From IMG/VR virus record IMGVR_UViG_3300024999_000040, positions 84,717 through 148,716 of that record: DNA of 64,000 nucleotides. One strand, given 5' to 3'. How positions within the stretch are numbered: position 1 is the first letter of the stretch; every line of letters begins with the position of its first letter. Source of the stretch: a virus. The notes beneath the pieces are model-generated. The model had not been told where the DNA came from. It was given only the letters and a program-made list of their open reading frames with translations, and did not search any database. A program made the translations under genes and the position numbers. Positions 24,016 through 48,905 of the stretch are shown one piece after another.

Positions 24016-24441
24016 TTACTCCTGCATCTCAAATTCAACGTTACATTCACCACAAATAATATTCTTATCTGCTTTAGCCTTTATCTTTTCTTCACATTGA
24101 GGACAAATGTATGTGAATTGTGTTTTCTCTTTAGGTGTACTTTCTTTTAACGGAGCATTCCTAAAATAAGAGAAACATTCCATATTTAACTTTATACTTT
24201 CATCAATGAAAGCCTTAAATTCTTCTGAACACGTTGTATGACCAAATCCATACTTCTTACTCTTGTCAACTATTAATCCTACAGCTTCAGCAGCCTTTTT
24301 AAACTTTTTATTATGTACTTGACCATTACAATCCTTAATCTCTGCTATTTTGTTAGCGTAGTGTACCATTTCATGTTGTAGCGTACATACTATCTCATAT
24401 CCATCTCTGCTGAGATATTCAGCACACATATGTAATTTCAT
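24016..24441 (-). CDS. SprT-like zinc metalloprotease, short N-terminus
   Basis: 141 residues. The active-site helix LQHEMVHYAN (HExxH) is at residues 22-31, followed by NGQVHNKKFKKAAEAVGLIV and YGFGHTT, as in SprT-like/Spartan proteins; the C-terminus is a zinc ribbon (CPQCEEK ... CGEC). The family normally has about 80 further residues before HExxH, and these are missing: an in-frame stop lies nine codons upstream of the ATG. There is no strong ribosome binding site, so the gene may be truncated. SprT-like proteins cut proteins crosslinked to DNA. Confidence 0.75.
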   Translation of the reverse strand: MKLHMCAEYLSRDGYEIVCTLQHEMVHYANKIAEIKDCNGQVHNKKFKKAAEAVGLIVDKSKKYGFGHTTCSEEFKAFIDESIKLNMECFSYFRNAPLKESTPKEKTQFTYICPQCEEKIKAKADKNIICGECNVEFEMQE

Positions 24442-24484
24442 ACCACATATCTTCTGAAGAATCTAGTAAATATAATTTCATATA

Positions 24485-24691
24485 TTAATCCTCATCCTCT
24501 ACTATATCTATTTTATTTACTGTTTCAGGAGTCAACCCTATACCCATTAGAAAATTCTTAAATTCATCAACTAAGAATTCTAAAGAAGTTTTATCCATAA
24601 ATACTGCATCGGTAAAAGTTTTTGTAATTCTACTTTCTTGACCAAATTCATCAGTATAGGCAAAATCTGTTTTTATAATATTTTCTTCCAT
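24485..24691 (-). CDS. Small acidic hypothetical protein
   Basis: 68 residues, acidic, with TDFAYTDEFGQESRITKTFTDAV at the start and VDEFKNFLMGIGLTPETVNKI. A GAAAGGAGAAATAAT site precedes the ATG. No family recognised. Confidence 0.52.
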   Translation of the reverse strand: MEENIIKTDFAYTDEFGQESRITKTFTDAVFMDKTSLEFLVDEFKNFLMGIGLTPETVNKIDIVEDED

Positions 24692-24712
24692 TATTATTTC
24701 TCCTTTCAGGCA

Positions 24713-24931
24713 TCAACTATCATATTGATATTCTGGAGTACAAATAAATCTGTAACTATATTCTTGTTCTTTTATTTCAAAAATTATTCTAGTTGCATCT
24801 CTATATTTGTCTCTTAGTATATCAAAGACTAATTTACAAACTTCTTTATCATCCATATTTTCAATTTCTATTCTTATTTCATCTTTCATATCATGTTTAT
24901 AAATATTATTTGAACAATCAATTTGTACCAT
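24713..24931 (-). CDS. Small hypothetical protein
   Basis: 72 residues, mixed alpha/beta and charged (KDEIRIEIENMDDKEVCKLVFDIL). It follows the radical-SAM gene by two bases and is probably co-translated with it. No family recognised. Confidence 0.52.
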   Translation of the reverse strand: MVQIDCSNNIYKHDMKDEIRIEIENMDDKEVCKLVFDILRDKYRDATRIIFEIKEQEYSYRFICTPEYQYDS

Positions 24932-24933
24932 AA

Positions 24934-25893
24934 TTATTCTCCTTTAACAATTTTAAACATTTCATCAATTGTTCCTAATAACTCATATCTATTTAAAGAA
25001 GTGGAATTCTTAGCAAAATCTTCTTTTACCAAATCTATATACATTGTAAATTGACCATCATCTCCCATATAAAATTCATTCCATTCTTCGGTTGTGAATA
25101 GCCTTCTTATATTCAATTGTTCTAATGCTAGATTATCAAAACTAACCACCTCGAAAGAAGCAATGATTTTATGCATATTATCATAAATAGATTTCTGATT
25201 TTTTACTATATTATCTTCATTATTTCCTTTGTACTCATGACCTCTTCTTAAATCTTTATATCCTAATATTAAAAGTTTATATCCTTTATTCGATAATTTC
25301 ATAATACTATCAAAAGAATGAATTCCATTAATAACATGAATTACTGTATTCTTCTTATATTCATTTACTTCTCCATCATCATATATATCTAAAGTAAATA
25401 TTCTTTCTAATTCTTCGGCATCTCCATTATAAGATATACCAACTCCATATACTTCTTTATGCTTCATCCAATGAAAAATATCATAAACATTTTGAGATTT
25501 AAAATAATTTTCTTTACCATTAAAGTTCATAAATTCACCAGTTAGATGATTTTGATTAACAGTTATATTTGCTATAATCCCCTTACTCTTACACCATTTT
25601 AAGAACATATATAAATCTTTATTCTCAAAAATATTCCCTCCACCTATAGCAAGTTCCGTTCCTGCTCTTAGTGAGTATAAAAATTCATGATTAAAATTTG
25701 CATTTTTACCATCTGGAGTAGAATTTTCATGACAAAAAGCACAGCCCATATCACACTTATCAGAAATTTTAATATCAATATTTTCAGGAAAAGAAGATAT
25801 GAATTTATCCTCGTTGTTTTCCCTTATTTTTGTTCCATCATCATAAAGTTTTACAGAATAATTTCCATTTATGTATTCATGAAGTAAATTCAT
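24934..25893 (-). CDS. Radical SAM enzyme, substrate unknown
   Basis: 319 residues. The 4Fe-4S motif CDMGCAFCHENSTPDGK (C-x3-C-x2-C) is at residues 48-64, preceded by the first barrel strand NIDIKISDKC; the later ELAIGGGN matches the SAM-binding GGE-type strand. The C-terminus has no extra Cys-rich SPASM cluster. It stands beside two paralogous genes with an N-terminal FETNSSS motif, so a protein- or peptide-modifying role is possible, but that is inference from neighbourhood only. Confidence 0.82.
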   Translation of the reverse strand: MNLLHEYINGNYSVKLYDDGTKIRENNEDKFISSFPENIDIKISDKCDMGCAFCHENSTPDGKNANFNHEFLYSLRAGTELAIGGGNIFENKDLYMFLKWCKSKGIIANITVNQNHLTGEFMNFNGKENYFKSQNVYDIFHWMKHKEVYGVGISYNGDAEELERIFTLDIYDDGEVNEYKKNTVIHVINGIHSFDSIMKLSNKGYKLLILGYKDLRRGHEYKGNNEDNIVKNQKSIYDNMHKIIASFEVVSFDNLALEQLNIRRLFTTEEWNEFYMGDDGQFTMYIDLVKEDFAKNSTSLNRYELLGTIDEMFKIVKGE

Positions 25894-25916
25894 ATCTCTT
25901 ATCTCCTTTTTCTTAA

Positions 25917-26210
25917 TTAACCATCATATCCAAAATAACCAAATGCTACTACTTCGTCACCGCTTTTAGTAGTAAAAGATTGTGAAAATTCTTCATAATC
26001 TCTTCCGTAATTTTCAAAAGTACATAAATCACTCCACTTATGTTCCTTTTTATACTTATCTAATTCATCAATTGGTACGAAAATATTTTCGTCTTTATCA
26101 AGTAATACTTCACCTTTCTTCCATTTTAAGTAATCTTCCTTTGCAACAATAGAAAGACTATGAGTAGAACTACTATTTGTTTCAAAAATACTTCTTCTAA
26201 TTTGAATCAT
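25917..26210 (-). CDS. FETNSSS-motif protein A
   Basis: 97 residues. The N-terminus IRRSIFETNSSSTHSLSIV is nearly the same as in the next gene, while the remainder differs. The shared segment is rich in Ser, Thr and Asn. I recall similar N-termini in phage hypothetical proteins. The C-terminus is glycine/aromatic (VAFGYFGYDG). It is immediately upstream of the radical-SAM gene in the transcript. Confidence 0.62.
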   Translation of the reverse strand: MIQIRRSIFETNSSSTHSLSIVAKEDYLKWKKGEVLLDKDENIFVPIDELDKYKKEHKWSDLCTFENYGRDYEEFSQSFTTKSGDEVVAFGYFGYDG

Positions 26211-43433: not shown

Positions 43434-43462
43434 ATTATACTTACTTAGTTAAGATTTGTCAA
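43434..43462 (-). promoter_or_regulatory. Promoter of NAD-salvage operon, with TTAACTAAG spacer motif
   Basis: TTGACA-17-TATAAT on the minus strand, perfect hexamers, TTAACTAAG ending 4 nt before the -10. It overlaps the last codons of the radical-SAM gene, so the NAD genes have their own start. Same spacer motif as at 22011, 27750 and 34370. Confidence 0.88.
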
Positions 43463-45377
43463 GTACATTTTTATATTCCTTTAACCATTTTTGAACATAG
43501 AATAATTGACCACATCCACCACCAATATCATCCTGTCCTGCTGGATTAAATATTCTGCAATCATATCCTTTATCAATAAAATACTGTTGAAATCCTTGAA
43601 TAGTATCTAGATTTCTAAATCCTGCCTCTTTCATGGTTTCATCAGCACTACATACAACACTGAAAGTAAAGCAATAAACCAAAGGACTAAAATTCATATA
43701 TAGTTTTAAGAAATCATCATGTCTATTATTTGTACCATCTACACAATAATTTAAATAAGGTTTCCTTCCAGTTTCTTTCCACCATAATAGTCCTGCATCT
43801 CTTAACTTATATAAACTCATTTTATTTTTAAATGGTATTAATTCATTTCTTTCTGCATCACACGATTTATGTATTGAAAATTGAAGCCCAACTTTAGAAA
43901 TCTCTTTTGATAAATTTATAATTCTTCTGAATACGTCATCATCATCTACTCCAATAGTTGATAATAATAAATCAGCATAAGGATATAAAATATGTAGACT
44001 TCTAATTGCTCTTTCCACTTCTTTAAAATTAAGCATAGGTTCACCCATACTCATAAACATAATTTGAAATTTACTGCAATTTTCAACGTTAATATTCATG
44101 TCACTTTTTATATGAAGAATTTGACTCAGAATTTCTTCGTTGGATAAATTTCTAATAAATTTCTTACCTGTACCACAATTATGAACTAATATATTTTCTG
44201 CAATATATGTATTTTTAGTAGTTGTTAAATTATACACTGTTCCAACAAAATTTCTCTCTTCAATTTTTACAATTTCGTCAAAATCCACTAAAGATTTTAC
44301 CTTTATATTTTGTATAAAATCTTTTTTAGGATGAATTGGAGTACAGATTTGTAAAAATTTAATTCTTGGCATAGTACTATCTAATACATATGTATTTCCT
44401 TCTTTATTATATTTTTTTATTTTAAAAGTGTAACCCAATTCTTTAATATATTTACCAAATTCATTTAAATATATTAAATTATTATTACATACTCTAACTG
44501 ATTTATTATTTTTAAATGAATATCCTTCTGCATCCCAAAAACCCGCCAAATAACCTTTTTTATAATTATTATTATCTGCATATTTATGAATAATACTATT
44601 AAAAACTTTAATTCCATTATCTCCAAATTCAAATCTATAATTTAACATATGTTTTTCAATTTTTGATTTCTGTTCCCATATGTCACTACATTGTATATGA
44701 AATTCAGAACATAAATTTTTAACAAAATTAATAACTTCTTTATTTGATTGAGATATAGACCACCTAAAGCAATTTTTATTTTTTCTTTGACTATAAACAC
44801 CATCTCCGTGGACAAATCCTACTAACCATCCTGCTTTCCAAAACAAGTCATTTTTATTATCAACTTGAACATTATTACAAGTTAAAACATTATCGCCTAT
44901 GTGAATATTTTCTATATTAACAAACTTGTTTCTATATAATTTTTTATTATTTATAGCTATTGGATGACCTACAGTAGCTTCAATTGACTTTCCACTTTTT
45001 GTAGTTAATTTTATTAATTTCCCATTATATTCTCTTGATGATACATTTAGTATTTTTGAAGAAGTTGAATTTAATGAAGAATAATCTGAAAATCCATTAG
45101 ACGCATTAGTTAATATATTTCCAATTATATTATCGCCTATTTTAACATCTACAATTTTCTTATAGGAAAAATCATCCATCAATATTTTAGTTTCTTCTGG
45201 TAAACAAAATGTGCAGCCTACTGGACATCCAGATTGTACAGAACAACATATAACCGTACGTTTTTCAAATGAATCATATTTATACAATACTGTTTCAGCT
45301 ATCGCATTATTAAATTCAAATATGTATTTCCACACATTACCTTCACTACTATCTAATCTTTTTACATTCTTAAACAT
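43449..45377 (-). CDS. RlmN/Cfr-like radical SAM methyltransferase interrupted by an intein
   Basis: 642 residues including a 343-residue intein. The joined extein (about 299 residues) has CSVQSGCPVGCTF-CGTG, matching the RlmN cluster motif C-x3-C-x2-C; Cys44 lies seven residues before the first cluster Cys, at the place of RlmN Cys118. GGGCGQLF near the C-terminus matches the methyl-carrying Cys355 (ACGQL). SMGEPMLN is the SAM-binding GEP strand. RlmN/Cfr proteins methylate A2503 of 23S rRNA and some tRNAs. The N-terminal RNA-binding domain (about 60 residues) of host RlmN is absent, so the target may differ. Confidence 0.87.
   Translation of the reverse strand: MFKNVKRLDSSEGNVWKYIFEFNNAIAETVLYKYDSFEKRTVICCSVQSGCPVGCTFCLPEETKILMDDFSYKKIVDVKIGDNIIGNILTNASNGFSDYSSLNSTSSKILNVSSREYNGKLIKLTTKSGKSIEATVGHPIAINNKKLYRNKFVNIENIHIGDNVLTCNNVQVDNKNDLFWKAGWLVGFVHGDGVYSQRKNKNCFRWSISQSNKEVINFVKNLCSEFHIQCSDIWEQKSKIEKHMLNYRFEFGDNGIKVFNSIIHKYADNNNYKKGYLAGFWDAEGYSFKNNKSVRVCNNNLIYLNEFGKYIKELGYTFKIKKYNKEGNTYVLDSTMPRIKFLQICTPIHPKKDFIQNIKVKSLVDFDEIVKIEERNFVGTVYNLTTTKNTYIAENILVHNCGTGKKFIRNLSNEEILSQILHIKSDMNINVENCSKFQIMFMSMGEPMLNFKEVERAIRSLHILYPYADLLLSTIGVDDDDVFRRIINLSKEISKVGLQFSIHKSCDAERNELIPFKNKMSLYKLRDAGLLWWKETGRKPYLNYCVDGTNNRHDDFLKLYMNFSPLVYCFTFSVVCSADETMKEAGFRNLDTIQGFQQYFIDKGYDCRIFNPAGQDDIGGGCGQLFYVQKWLKEYKNVLDKS
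44178..45206 (-). mobile_element. Intein with LAGLIDADG homing endonuclease
   Basis: Splicing blocks: Cys1 with CLPEETKILM (block A), TVGHPIAI (block B), and VYNLTTTKNTYIAENILVHN followed by Cys+1 (blocks F/G, His-Asn end). Two LAGLIDADG motifs sit between: GWLVGFVHGDG near residue 183 and YLAGFWDAEG near residue 276. Cys+1 is the third cysteine of the host enzyme's iron-sulfur motif, so the enzyme cannot assemble its cluster correctly until splicing occurs. Confidence 0.92.
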
Positions 45378-46530: not shown

Positions 46531-47139
46531 TTATTTCAAAATTTGTACAAAAGCTTTTATAACACCTAAATCCATTGCTTGTTTAGTACAATCTTCTCCA
46601 AGAAATAGATCAATTCGGTTTCCCTTAATTAATCTTCCTGTATCTTTGGCCTGATACACCCCTGAAAATTGCTCATATTTTTCACCAAAAAATCTAATCT
46701 TAACCTTGCTATGTAAAGGTATAACTTTCGGATCAATGGCTATCACTCTTGCTGTTTCCCAATTTAACCCTTTTAAATTAAAGCCCGAAAATGTAATTCC
46801 GTATTCAGGATGTGTTTTCTTTTTTCCGCATGACTGAACCGAAAGGTCGTAAAATGTAACCTTGAATTCTTCCCATTCTTCACTTTCTCCCCTTGAAGCT
46901 AAAACAAATTCTCTCAATTCTTCTCGTTCTTTATAAAGTTTTTGGATTTCAATTTCCTTCTCTTTTATAATATTTTCTTTGTTACTATTTTCATTTAGTA
47001 TGAATTTAATTTGATTTTCTTTTTCAATCTTCATTTGTCTGTTTTTAATTTCATTTTTCTGATTCTCTGCTATTATATTTGCAAATATAACAGCTAATAT
47101 AGTTAAGAACAATATAATTACTCCATATTTAAATTTCAT
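46531..47139 (-). CDS. 3D-domain protein with N-terminal membrane anchor
   Basis: 202 residues. A signal-anchor helix (YGVIILFLTILAVIFANII) and a coiled coil (residues 30-80) are followed by a 3D domain: ARVIAIDPKVIPLHSKVKI, YQAKDTGRLIKGNRIDLFL, with the three conserved Asp residues. 3D domains are linked to cell-wall and lytic enzymes. SPbeta encodes a 3D protein (YorM). It lies directly beyond the right-end hairpin of the IscB element, only 17 bases from its start codon. Confidence 0.8.
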   Translation of the reverse strand: MKFKYGVIILFLTILAVIFANIIAENQKNEIKNRQMKIEKENQIKFILNENSNKENIIKEKEIEIQKLYKEREELREFVLASRGESEEWEEFKVTFYDLSVQSCGKKKTHPEYGITFSGFNLKGLNWETARVIAIDPKVIPLHSKVKIRFFGEKYEQFSGVYQAKDTGRLIKGNRIDLFLGEDCTKQAMDLGVIKAFVQILK

Positions 47140-47199
47140 AAAACCTTGGCAGGAAACCCCTACGCCTTTAGGCTAGGGGAGGAATGCCTTACGCATACT

Positions 47200-48432
47200 C
47201 TAACCTACCTTTCTCCTCTCAGTTAATAAACTTTTTCTTCTCTCAATTAATTTGAAAGATTTACAATTAACACTACCTTTGTTTACTTTAGTACCATCTA
47301 AAGTTCTAATATCAAAGAAACCAGTGTTTCTTCTTCCAAAGATATAATATAGCTTCCCTTGGTATTGAATCTTATCAAATAATCTAAACCCTTTTACCTC
47401 AAATTGCGCTTGATTTAACTTCTTAATTCCACATTTTAATATATTCGCTTTATGGATCTGTCTGTTGTGGCATCTTACTTTCTTATAAAAGTAATAATAG
47501 TTTAATCTTTTAACTAATGGATTGCCACTTATACATAAAGCATCAATCCTATGTTCTTTTGGTAATTTATTCTCAATTCTTGTATTCTTAGTTATATAGC
47601 CATAAGTTAATGTTACATTAGGATATATTTCTTTTAACTTATTATAAAATGCCCAACGCATTATTCCCATAAAAGCCGCATCTTTGAATGATTTACCACG
47701 CTTTAAATTTAATTTCAATTTGCCATTATGATAATCTTCATGACATTCTTCACATAAGGTAATCAGATTACTTGGTGCATCTCCACCAGTTTTTCTTGAT
47801 TCAATGTGATGTACATTTAATATTTTATTCTTACATCCTTTTTTGCCTTGACATTTATGCCCATCTCTAAATAGTACATACTCACGTACATTCCAGAAAT
47901 CTAATTGATTGCCTTGTTGATATTCTTTTCCTTGTATTTCTGGATTATTTATTTTCTGTATATCAAAACTTGCTACTTCAACTATTATTTTAGATATAGG
48001 TAATATCTTATAAATCTTATCAACAATACTTAAATGTGTTTGTATTTTGTTTTCAATACTAGGTGCCAGCCATCCTTTGTTTTTACTACCAACACGATTT
48101 AAAAATCTAGGTTCCCTATATCTTAATCTATTTCTTCTAGTACGTCTATTTTGTCTGCGTGTAGAAAGCAAATCCACAATATCATTTCTTAATTCAACTT
48201 CTGATGAATATAGTTCTTGTTTTTCAGTAGTAGCAGATAAGCCTATTACTTTGCTTCCTGCGTCAATACCTAATGTAATATCTTGAACTTGATTCTCACA
48301 TTCAAAAATTAGTTGAATAGTGAATGGTTCTTTTTTAACAACTCTTGCCAGACTGTCTCTGAGCAATTTTCTTGCTTTTGCTTCTTTGCAAGGCATTATA
48401 GGTTTACCTTGAATGTTTAATACATATACCAT
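47200..48432 (-). CDS. iscB: IscB RNA-guided nuclease
   Basis: 410 residues. N-terminal PLMP-type domain (KPIMPCKEAKARKLLRDSLA), RuvC-I with GIDAGSKVIG near residue 55, the arginine-rich bridge helix (RRQNRRTRRNRLRYREPRF), RuvC-II KIIVEVASFD near 147, an HNH domain VLFRDGHKCQ ... LNVHHIESRKTGGDAPSN near 185-225, and RuvC-III HRIDALCIS near 285, then a C-terminal domain (EVKGFRLFDKIQYQGKLYYIFGRR). All catalytic residues seem intact. IscB cuts DNA matched by its omega-RNA guide and is the ancestor of Cas9. The start follows ACGGAGG at a longer than usual distance. Confidence 0.93.
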   Translation of the reverse strand: MVYVLNIQGKPIMPCKEAKARKLLRDSLARVVKKEPFTIQLIFECENQVQDITLGIDAGSKVIGLSATTEKQELYSSEVELRNDIVDLLSTRRQNRRTRRNRLRYREPRFLNRVGSKNKGWLAPSIENKIQTHLSIVDKIYKILPISKIIVEVASFDIQKINNPEIQGKEYQQGNQLDFWNVREYVLFRDGHKCQGKKGCKNKILNVHHIESRKTGGDAPSNLITLCEECHEDYHNGKLKLNLKRGKSFKDAAFMGIMRWAFYNKLKEIYPNVTLTYGYITKNTRIENKLPKEHRIDALCISGNPLVKRLNYYYFYKKVRCHNRQIHKANILKCGIKKLNQAQFEVKGFRLFDKIQYQGKLYYIFGRRNTGFFDIRTLDGTKVNKGSVNCKSFKLIERRKSLLTERRKVG

Positions 48433-48659
48433 TTTGTTTATAAAACCTCCGTATATTAGAGTTAATATCCTTAGACAATGTTGTAAAGGCTTGTTGTATA
48501 TAGCACACCGTTCCTACCTCTTAGAACTTTTAATACTATACGATAGAGCCAAGAACTAGGATAAATATTCTTGGGTATCATGACCTAAACAACATAGTTA
48601 ATTAAAACTTAGTCTAGTCAATCAGGCTTTTACAAGCCCCGACCCTTTAGGGTCGCGGG
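48433..48659 (-). ncRNA. Omega-RNA of the IscB element
   Basis: The 227 bases immediately 5' of iscB have no ORF and fold by eye into successive hairpins: CGACCC/GGGTCG, GGCTT/AAGCC, CCAAGAA/TTCTTGG, GTTC/GAAC within GTATAG/CTATAT. The location and length fit the known omega-RNA, whose 5' guide comes from the sequence flanking the element. The guide would then lie at 48660-48680, within the end of the neighbouring gene. Confidence 0.75.
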
Positions 48660-48905
48660 TTATTGACCGTCTTTTTCCTTTGCATAATTATTTTTTAGCC
48701 AATCCTTGATATACCTTACTGTTTCTTCAAATTCAGTGAAGTACATTTTATGATCTATGGATGAATATATGTTTACTCCACTTCTTATAATATTAAAATG
48801 ATATATTTTAGTTACTGTTAACATACGTACATAAATCTTCAAATCATAATATTTAGCAACCCAAAGAGGATAAATTTTGTTTCGTTTTGCTCGTATAAAC
48901 TGCAT
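48660..48905 (-). CDS. Hypothetical protein ending at the IscB element
   Basis: 81 residues, basic and aromatic (RAKRNKIYPLWVAKYYDLKIYVRML). Its stop codon abuts the left hairpin of the IscB element, so its original C-terminus may have been changed by the insertion. No family recognised. Confidence 0.55.
   Translation of the reverse strand: MQFIRAKRNKIYPLWVAKYYDLKIYVRMLTVTKIYHFNIIRSGVNIYSSIDHKMYFTEFEETVRYIKDWLKNNYAKEKDGQ

What the first reader, a model, noticed from the sequence alone, without database searches (positions are those of the whole stretch)
47157..48680. Phage-borne IscB with omega-RNA and IS200/IS605-like ends, no transposase
A full-length IscB with apparently intact RuvC and HNH motifs, a 227-nt structured segment 5' of it, and matching imperfect terminal hairpins (TTTA loop, bulged C). 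No tnpA is present. The guide should come from the flanking gene end (48660-48680), so the nuclease would cut phages lacking the insert, acting like a homing endonuclease or as exclusion of related phages.
Basis: partly seen in the sequence, partly recalled or inferred. Interest (0 to 1): 0.75.

Follow-up and report, generated by a model that had tools for sequence, protein, structure and literature searches.

The report
Phage-borne IscB transposon without its transposase
A large bacterial virus carries three compact transposon-like elements, each encoding IscB, an RNA-guided DNA cutter related to Cas9; this one sits exactly between a viral gene's ribosome-binding site and its start codon, and most likely keeps itself in place by cutting viral DNA copies that lack it, which makes it a clear new example of a known kind of selfish element.

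Summary
Window 47140-48667 (minus strand, 1528 bp) is a complete tnpA-less IscB/omega-RNA element with IS200/IS605-type ends. IscB (47200-48432) passes NCBIfam's guided_IscB cut-off (371 vs 175 bits) with conserved catalytic residues. The 5' RNA is Rfam HEARO (145.8 bits, gathering 83). The 148.7-kb virus record holds two further IscBs and no Y1 transposase or TnpB. Nine phage members share ends: GTCA at the RNA end and ATGA directly after the other end. Joining the flanks restores a Shine-Dalgarno plus start codon and a gene overlap. No relative of this exact site was found. A 70%-identical member (L012) has uninterrupted relatives showing a scarless insertion at the predicted position. IscB is under purifying selection (dN/dS about 0.11). 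Best explanation: an element mobilised in trans by a transposase from elsewhere, with IscB cutting empty sites to force its own recopying or inheritance. Cleavage itself is inferred. Phage-borne tnpA-less HEARO/IscB is already described, so this is a new member of a known kind.

The parts
47140..48667 (-). whole IscB/omega-RNA element (1528 bp); starts GTCAATAACCC, ends GCCAAGGTTTT
   Evidence: end alignment of nine phage members: GTCA at one end, ATGA directly after the other; scarless empty site in relatives of member L012
47200..48432 (-). iscB ORF, 410 aa, RuvC-HNH-RuvC nuclease; D57, E152, H209, H294 and D297 invariant in the 15-member alignment
   Evidence: PF14239 216.5 bits + PF01844 HNH; NCBIfam NF040563 371 bits, cut-off 175; PDB IscB E 7e-49; invariant columns
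48461..48667 (-). omega-RNA scaffold (HEARO, RF02033, model 1-211 complete)
   Evidence: cmscan 145.8 bits, E 1.7e-30; fold z -3.4
48668..48683 (-). predicted 16-nt guide GCAAAGGAAAAAGACG, from the flanking phage DNA; contains the Shine-Dalgarno AAAGGA (48681-48676) of the next gene
   Evidence: adjacent 5' to the conserved GTCA end; guide length of 16 nt is family knowledge
47135..47139 (-). target-adjacent motif ATGAA (TTCAT on the transposase strand); ATG 47139-47137 is the start codon of the 3D-domain gene
   Evidence: ATGA follows the element in 9/9 phage members and in 30/30 fetched right ends of an IscB-rich Clostridiales MAG
47157..47179 (-). terminal hairpin at the IscB 3' end, TTTA loop, bulged base
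   Evidence: sequence; DNA fold; conserved foot RGGAAA/GGAGA in members
48637..48659 (-). terminal hairpin at the omega-RNA end, inside the HEARO fold; conserved CAAG foot and TTGAC end on the transposase strand
   Evidence: z -3.8
46531..47139 (-). downstream phage gene, 3D-domain protein (202 aa); insertion directly before its start codon
   Evidence: PF06725 47.6 bits; joined flanks
48660..48905 (-). upstream phage ORF (81 aa); its last codons and stop come from the element; in the joined empty site it would end KEKDDEI* and overlap the next start

Best explanation
It is a non-autonomous IS200/IS605-type mobile element carrying IscB and its omega-RNA. A Y1 TnpA transposase supplied from elsewhere (host or another element) peels it out as single strand and pastes it next to TTCAT (ATGAA on the IscB strand). 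Reading phage transcription from the upstream gene, the first 16 bases of the omega-RNA are flanking phage DNA, so IscB is programmed with its own insertion site. IscB-omega-RNA then cuts any copy that still has guide + ATGA, meaning daughter genomes after excision or co-infecting phages without the insert. Repair against a copy with the insert restores or spreads it. The element itself is not cut, because insertion separates the guide from the motif. Shown: nuclease, RNA, ends, insertion position, absence of tnpA, purifying selection, natural scarless empty site for a family member. Inferred: transposition in trans, transcription from the upstream gene, cleavage, and repair-driven copying.
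For: IscB family and conserved catalytic residues. HEARO RNA directly 5'. Conserved ends in nine phage elements of 1500-1535 bp with unrelated flanks. TCAT|...TTGAC| ends with hairpin feet that could pair with them, as in IS200/IS605. Joined flanks give AAAGGA-8 nt-ATG and restore an upstream ORF that overlaps the start. Natural uninterrupted relatives for L012 with collinear flanks, up to 92.7% left and 98.4% right. 30/30 right ends in a Clostridiales MAG are followed by ATGA. dN 0.11, dS 1.0 between two copies. An autonomous-looking relative (IscB 45% identical) with an adjacent TnpA-like ORF, read by eye, in Clostridioides phage pCD1602_4. IscB presence/absence polymorphism in Staphylococcus phages with 99.8% identical flanks.
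Against: No empty site for this exact locus was found. The L012 empty relatives carry ACGA/CCGA, and most a mismatch at the guide's last base, so they are not cleavable alleles under the model. No RNA or cleavage data. No TnpA source identified for this phage; the record may be a fragment. The two near copies in the record differ by 19% in DNA, so no recent movement within this genome is visible. The nearest relative in viral contigs (L009) has a nonsense codon in iscB, so loss is tolerated.
Confidence: 0.8

Rival explanations
1. Phage-domesticated homing nuclease: immobile as a transposon, spreading only by cutting insert-free co-infecting phages and being copied by recombination.
For: No TnpA in the record; purifying selection; distant Staphylococcus phage IscBs are polymorphic for presence, and in Silviavirus the right junction re-supplies a synonymously recoded gene start that would not match the left flank, as expected for homing.
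Against: The window element keeps full, conserved IS200/IS605-type ends at both sides, which pure homing would not need; near relatives sit at many unrelated sites.
Confidence: 0.3
2. Exclusion/competition function: the phage benefits because IscB destroys rival phages carrying the same site.
For: Follows logically if the nuclease acts on insert-free relatives; no tool result supports it directly.
Against: No meaningful PADLOC hit; no conserved placement or partner genes; 3 copies with different guides in one genome look like invasion rather than a tuned defence.
Confidence: 0.12
3. Decaying passenger: intact by chance, no longer expressed or active.
For: L009 iscB has a stop at residue 121; the Clostridiales MAG holds 178 matches, mostly broken copies.
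Against: Full-length ORF, invariant catalytic residues, complete HEARO, dN/dS about 0.11.
Confidence: 0.12
4. Guide repurposed to regulate or silence the neighbouring ribosome-binding site/start codon, like TldR transcription factors.
For: The guide is the Shine-Dalgarno region and the motif is the start codon.
Against: Catalytic residues intact, unlike TldR; the target is split by the element itself; only 5 of 9 members lie at start codons.
Confidence: 0.03

Closest known systems
IscB/HEARO OMEGA systems (OgeuIscB, MG35-1 HEARO; NCBIfam NF040563, Rfam RF02033)
   Same: PLMP/RuvC/HNH nuclease, HEARO omega-RNA directly 5' of the ORF, flank-derived guide, motif 3' of the target; virus-associated and mostly tnpA-less members already reported (PMC9755519). 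OgeuIscB motif NWRRNA (PMC11900391) is compatible with ATGAAA
   Different: 410 aa instead of 496; inferred motif ATGA; three copies in one phage; guide and motif are a phage gene's ribosome-binding site and start codon
IS200/IS605 transposons with TnpA + TnpB (IS608, ISDra2)
   Same: scarless insertion next to a 4-5-nt motif that also serves as nuclease motif, subterminal hairpins, no target duplication (model summarised in PMC12477157)
   Different: IscB instead of TnpB, so RNA and guide are at the other end; no tnpA in the record
IscB + TnpA element of Clostridioides phage pCD1602_4 (CP069348.1)
   Same: HEARO, IscB (45% identity over 373 residues), GTCA end, phage host
   Different: carries an adjacent TnpA-like ORF; its right flank is TTTAT/ATAAA-type, not TTCAT/ATGAA (by eye)
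TnpB gene drive in plasmids (PMC11870625)
   Same: IS-encoded guided nuclease cuts insert-free copies of a multicopy replicon
   Different: demonstrated for TnpB on plasmids, not for IscB on phages

Membership tests
IscB (OMEGA nuclease) | RRXRR/PLMP N-terminus, RuvC and HNH domains, family profile above cut-off | tested here: met
   PF14239, PF01844; NF040563 371 vs 175 bits; PDB IscB hits by sequence and fold (model pLDDT 73)
IscB (OMEGA nuclease) | RuvC and HNH catalytic residues | tested here: met
   D57, E152, H209, H294 and D297 invariant in 15 members and aligned with OgeuIscB
IscB (OMEGA nuclease) | HEARO/omega-RNA directly upstream | tested here: met
   RF02033 full length, 145.8 bits
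IscB (OMEGA nuclease) | guide + target-adjacent motif at the empty site | tested here: inconclusive
   own empty site not found; the junction is right for member L012, but its empty relatives carry ACGA/CCGA
IscB (OMEGA nuclease) | RNA-guided DNA cleavage | not testable with these tools
   needs biochemistry
IS200/IS605 superfamily element | subterminal hairpins, short target motif at one end, scarless insertion | tested here: met
   TCAT| 9/9, TGAC| 9/9, hairpins, no duplication
IS200/IS605 superfamily element | encodes Y1 TnpA (autonomous members) | tested here: not met
   PF01797 absent from the 148.7-kb record, controls positive; so non-autonomous at most
Homing endonuclease (functional sense) | cuts insert-free allele and is copied into it | not tested
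   inferred from architecture

The most novel reading that the evidence does not exclude
Phage IscBs form several lineages of RNA-guided homing elements that settle at ribosome-binding sites and start codons. The motif (ATGA) reads the start codon, the guide copies the Shine-Dalgarno, insertion puts the RNA in the sense direction of a phage operon, and in Silviavirus the insert brings a recoded copy of the target that protects its carrier.
Probability: 0.3. Interest if true: 0.6.

Novelty: new member of a known kind. Interest (0 to 1): 0.35.

Why it matters
It gives a fully delimited phage IscB element with an exact predicted guide and motif, so the idea that transposon nucleases act as gene drives or homing nucleases in phages becomes directly testable. 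The end alignment also yields a likely motif (ATGA) for this compact IscB group (410 aa). The Staphylococcus phages with and without IscB at 99.8% flank identity, noticed on the way, are cultured material in which the same question can be put to co-infection.

Tried and rejected
Searches for relatives of the interrupted junction: 3D-protein in viral contigs (none), exact guide+ATGA pattern (18 hits, all unrelated contexts, many of them ribosome-binding/start regions, by flank tblastn), ORF 48660-48905 (none), copy 2's downstream gene (none), 3D-protein in nine related phage records (only distant), DNA flanks in phages. L016's flanking gene gave only itself. Self-targets of the three guides in the record: none below 3 mismatches, and none with ATGA below 4 mismatches. 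Rejected: 'all insertions are at start codons': only 5/9 phage members and 10/30 right ends in the MAG are, though both exceed the roughly 7% background. L013 was not used as evidence: same right flank as L012 but another left flank, same sample, possible assembly chimera. A PADLOC defence reading was dropped (only generic HNH matches). The GTGA/ATGA insertion rule that I recall from the original HEARO description could not be checked: the paper was not found in the library.

Full report
The window is the last 64 kb of a 148,716-bp virus record. Large phage genes surround the site: DNA polymerase, DnaB, NAD-dependent ligase and integrase, a MrpR-like core-binding protein and a 3D-domain protein.

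The nuclease. ORF 47200-48432 (minus) is a 410-aa IscB. It matches PF14239 (216.5 bits) and HNH, passes the NCBIfam equivalog 'RNA-guided endonuclease IscB' with 371 bits against a cut-off of 175, and finds solved IscB structures by sequence (E 7e-49) and by fold (model mean pLDDT only 73). Catalytic positions D57 (RuvC-I), E152 (RuvC-II), H209 (HNH) and H294/D297 (RuvC-III) are invariant in 15 members and align with OgeuIscB. Comparison with the second copy in the same record gives dN 0.108 and dS 1.0, so the protein has been kept under purifying selection.

The RNA. The 207 bases 48461-48667, just 5' of the ORF, are a full-length HEARO/omega-RNA (145.8 bits; gathering score 83), and the strand folds better than all 200 shuffles.

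Ends and boundaries. Nine phage elements with 67-100% identical IscB, but mostly unrelated flanks, share exact ends. The RNA end is always GTCA. The other end is a hairpin, GCC and 6-10 bases, after which the flank always begins ATGA. On the transposase strand this reads TCAT|...TTGAC| (CTGAC in L017), with conserved bases at the hairpin feet (GGAAA or similar, CAAG) able to pair with TTC and TTG, the pattern of IS200/IS605 ends (the pairing is my reading). Independent of these phages, 30 of 30 fetched right ends of an IscB-rich Clostridiales MAG, found by an internal pattern that does not include the flank, are followed by ATGA within 5-8 bases. The window element is therefore 47140-48667.

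The insertion site. Joining the flanks gives ATGCAAAGGAAAAAGACG|ATGAAATTTAAATATGG: a Shine-Dalgarno (AAAGGA), 8 bases, and the ATG of the 3D-domain gene; the upstream 81-aa ORF would end KDDEI* overlapping that start. This restored gene arrangement is good evidence for the boundaries. Copy 2 likewise joins GAGGTAGCAATA|ATGAAAATA. In all, 5 of 9 phage members and 10 of 30 right ends in the MAG lie at a start codon, against about 7% of ATGA sites at random; the motif is ATGA, and start codons are an over-represented class of it.

Natural empty sites. None was found for the window locus or for copy 2. For member L012 (70% identical IscB), five phage contigs keep the two neighbouring genes uninterrupted. 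The junction is collinear and scarless: L012 ...CAACAAATACTT[element]ATGAAGGGAACG against L151 ...CAACAAATACTAACGAAGGGAACG. The uninterrupted versions read ACGA or CCGA, not ATGA, and four of five differ at the guide's last base (the fifth, L154, is more diverged). Either the insertion happened in a lineage that had acquired ATGA, or alleles without the motif are the survivors; the data do not separate these.

Mobility. No Y1 transposase or TnpB is in the record (controls positive), so this element could only move with a transposase supplied in trans. A relative in Clostridioides phage pCD1602_4 has HEARO, IscB and an adjacent TnpA-like ORF (read by eye; HEARO), so autonomous phage versions probably exist.

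Mechanism. The best-supported reading is the family's general one: TnpA-type insertion next to TTCAT/ATGAA, a guide taken from the insertion site, and cleavage of copies lacking the element so that repair restores or spreads it (the peel-paste-and-copy model for TnpB is summarised in PMC12477157; gene drive by TnpB in plasmids in PMC11870625). Nuclease, RNA, ends, position and selection are shown here by sequence; transcription, cleavage and copying are inferred.

Prior knowledge. PMC9755519 reports that HEARO/IscB nucleases are RNA-guided, that over 16% of the genomic fragments encoding them are viral or prophage, and that only a few are linked to TnpA. A phage-borne IscB without tnpA is thus not new in kind. 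The OgeuIscB motif NWRRNA (PMC11900391) is compatible with ATGAAA.

A distant but informative parallel. Staphylococcus phages carry more diverged IscBs. JDF86 and phiSA_BS1 differ by the insert with 99.75-99.8% identical flanks, the insert lying in the Shine-Dalgarno. In Silviavirus, 7 records cover most of the IscB-bearing query and most of the other 49 matching records cover only its flanks; the right junction there carries a synonymously recoded copy of the start of the resolvase gene. These support homing-like spread of IscB between phages, but they are another lineage with other ends, and their guides were not established.

Noticed in passing
L158 (Staphylococcus phage VL10) vs L230/L231/L233; L160 (JDF86) vs L234; L159 (Golestan101-M) vs L236: IscB present/absent between near-identical Staphylococcus phages, inserted at Shine-Dalgarno or gene start; in Silviavirus the right junction has a recoded gene start (ACAAATTCGAARAAAAAA for ACAAATAGTAAAAAAAAA). 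HEARO only at 32-33 bits.
   Followed up: partly
G010 (genome of L131, Clostridiales MAG Nc350_bin65): 178 IscB matches, mostly broken, and 67 exact right ends in one 7.7-Mb MAG: an extreme IscB burst.
   Followed up: partly
window 43449-45377 (-): Phage protein (radical-SAM-like by eye) with an in-frame intein carrying a LAGLIDADG homing endonuclease (PF14890, PF14528).
   Followed up: no
L009 4001-5221: Closest viral-contig relative of the window IscB (81%) has one in-frame stop at residue 121 and lies near MrpR-like and 447-aa homologues in the same order as in the window.
   Followed up: partly
L003 1200-2900 (G000 about 24,320-26,020): Third IscB copy (48%) has GTCA at its RNA end but no ATGA at a comparable place after the 3' hairpin; its motif may differ.
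   Followed up: no
L012 and L013: Same right-flank gene, near-identical elements, different left flanks in contigs of one sample: recombination between copies or assembly chimera.
   Followed up: no
L003 3166-3294: Skipping-rope RNA (RF02924) just downstream of the third IscB copy.
   Followed up: no
L002 1-410: An ORF end resembling an IS66-type transposase C-terminus lies upstream of the second IscB copy (by eye only).
   Followed up: no
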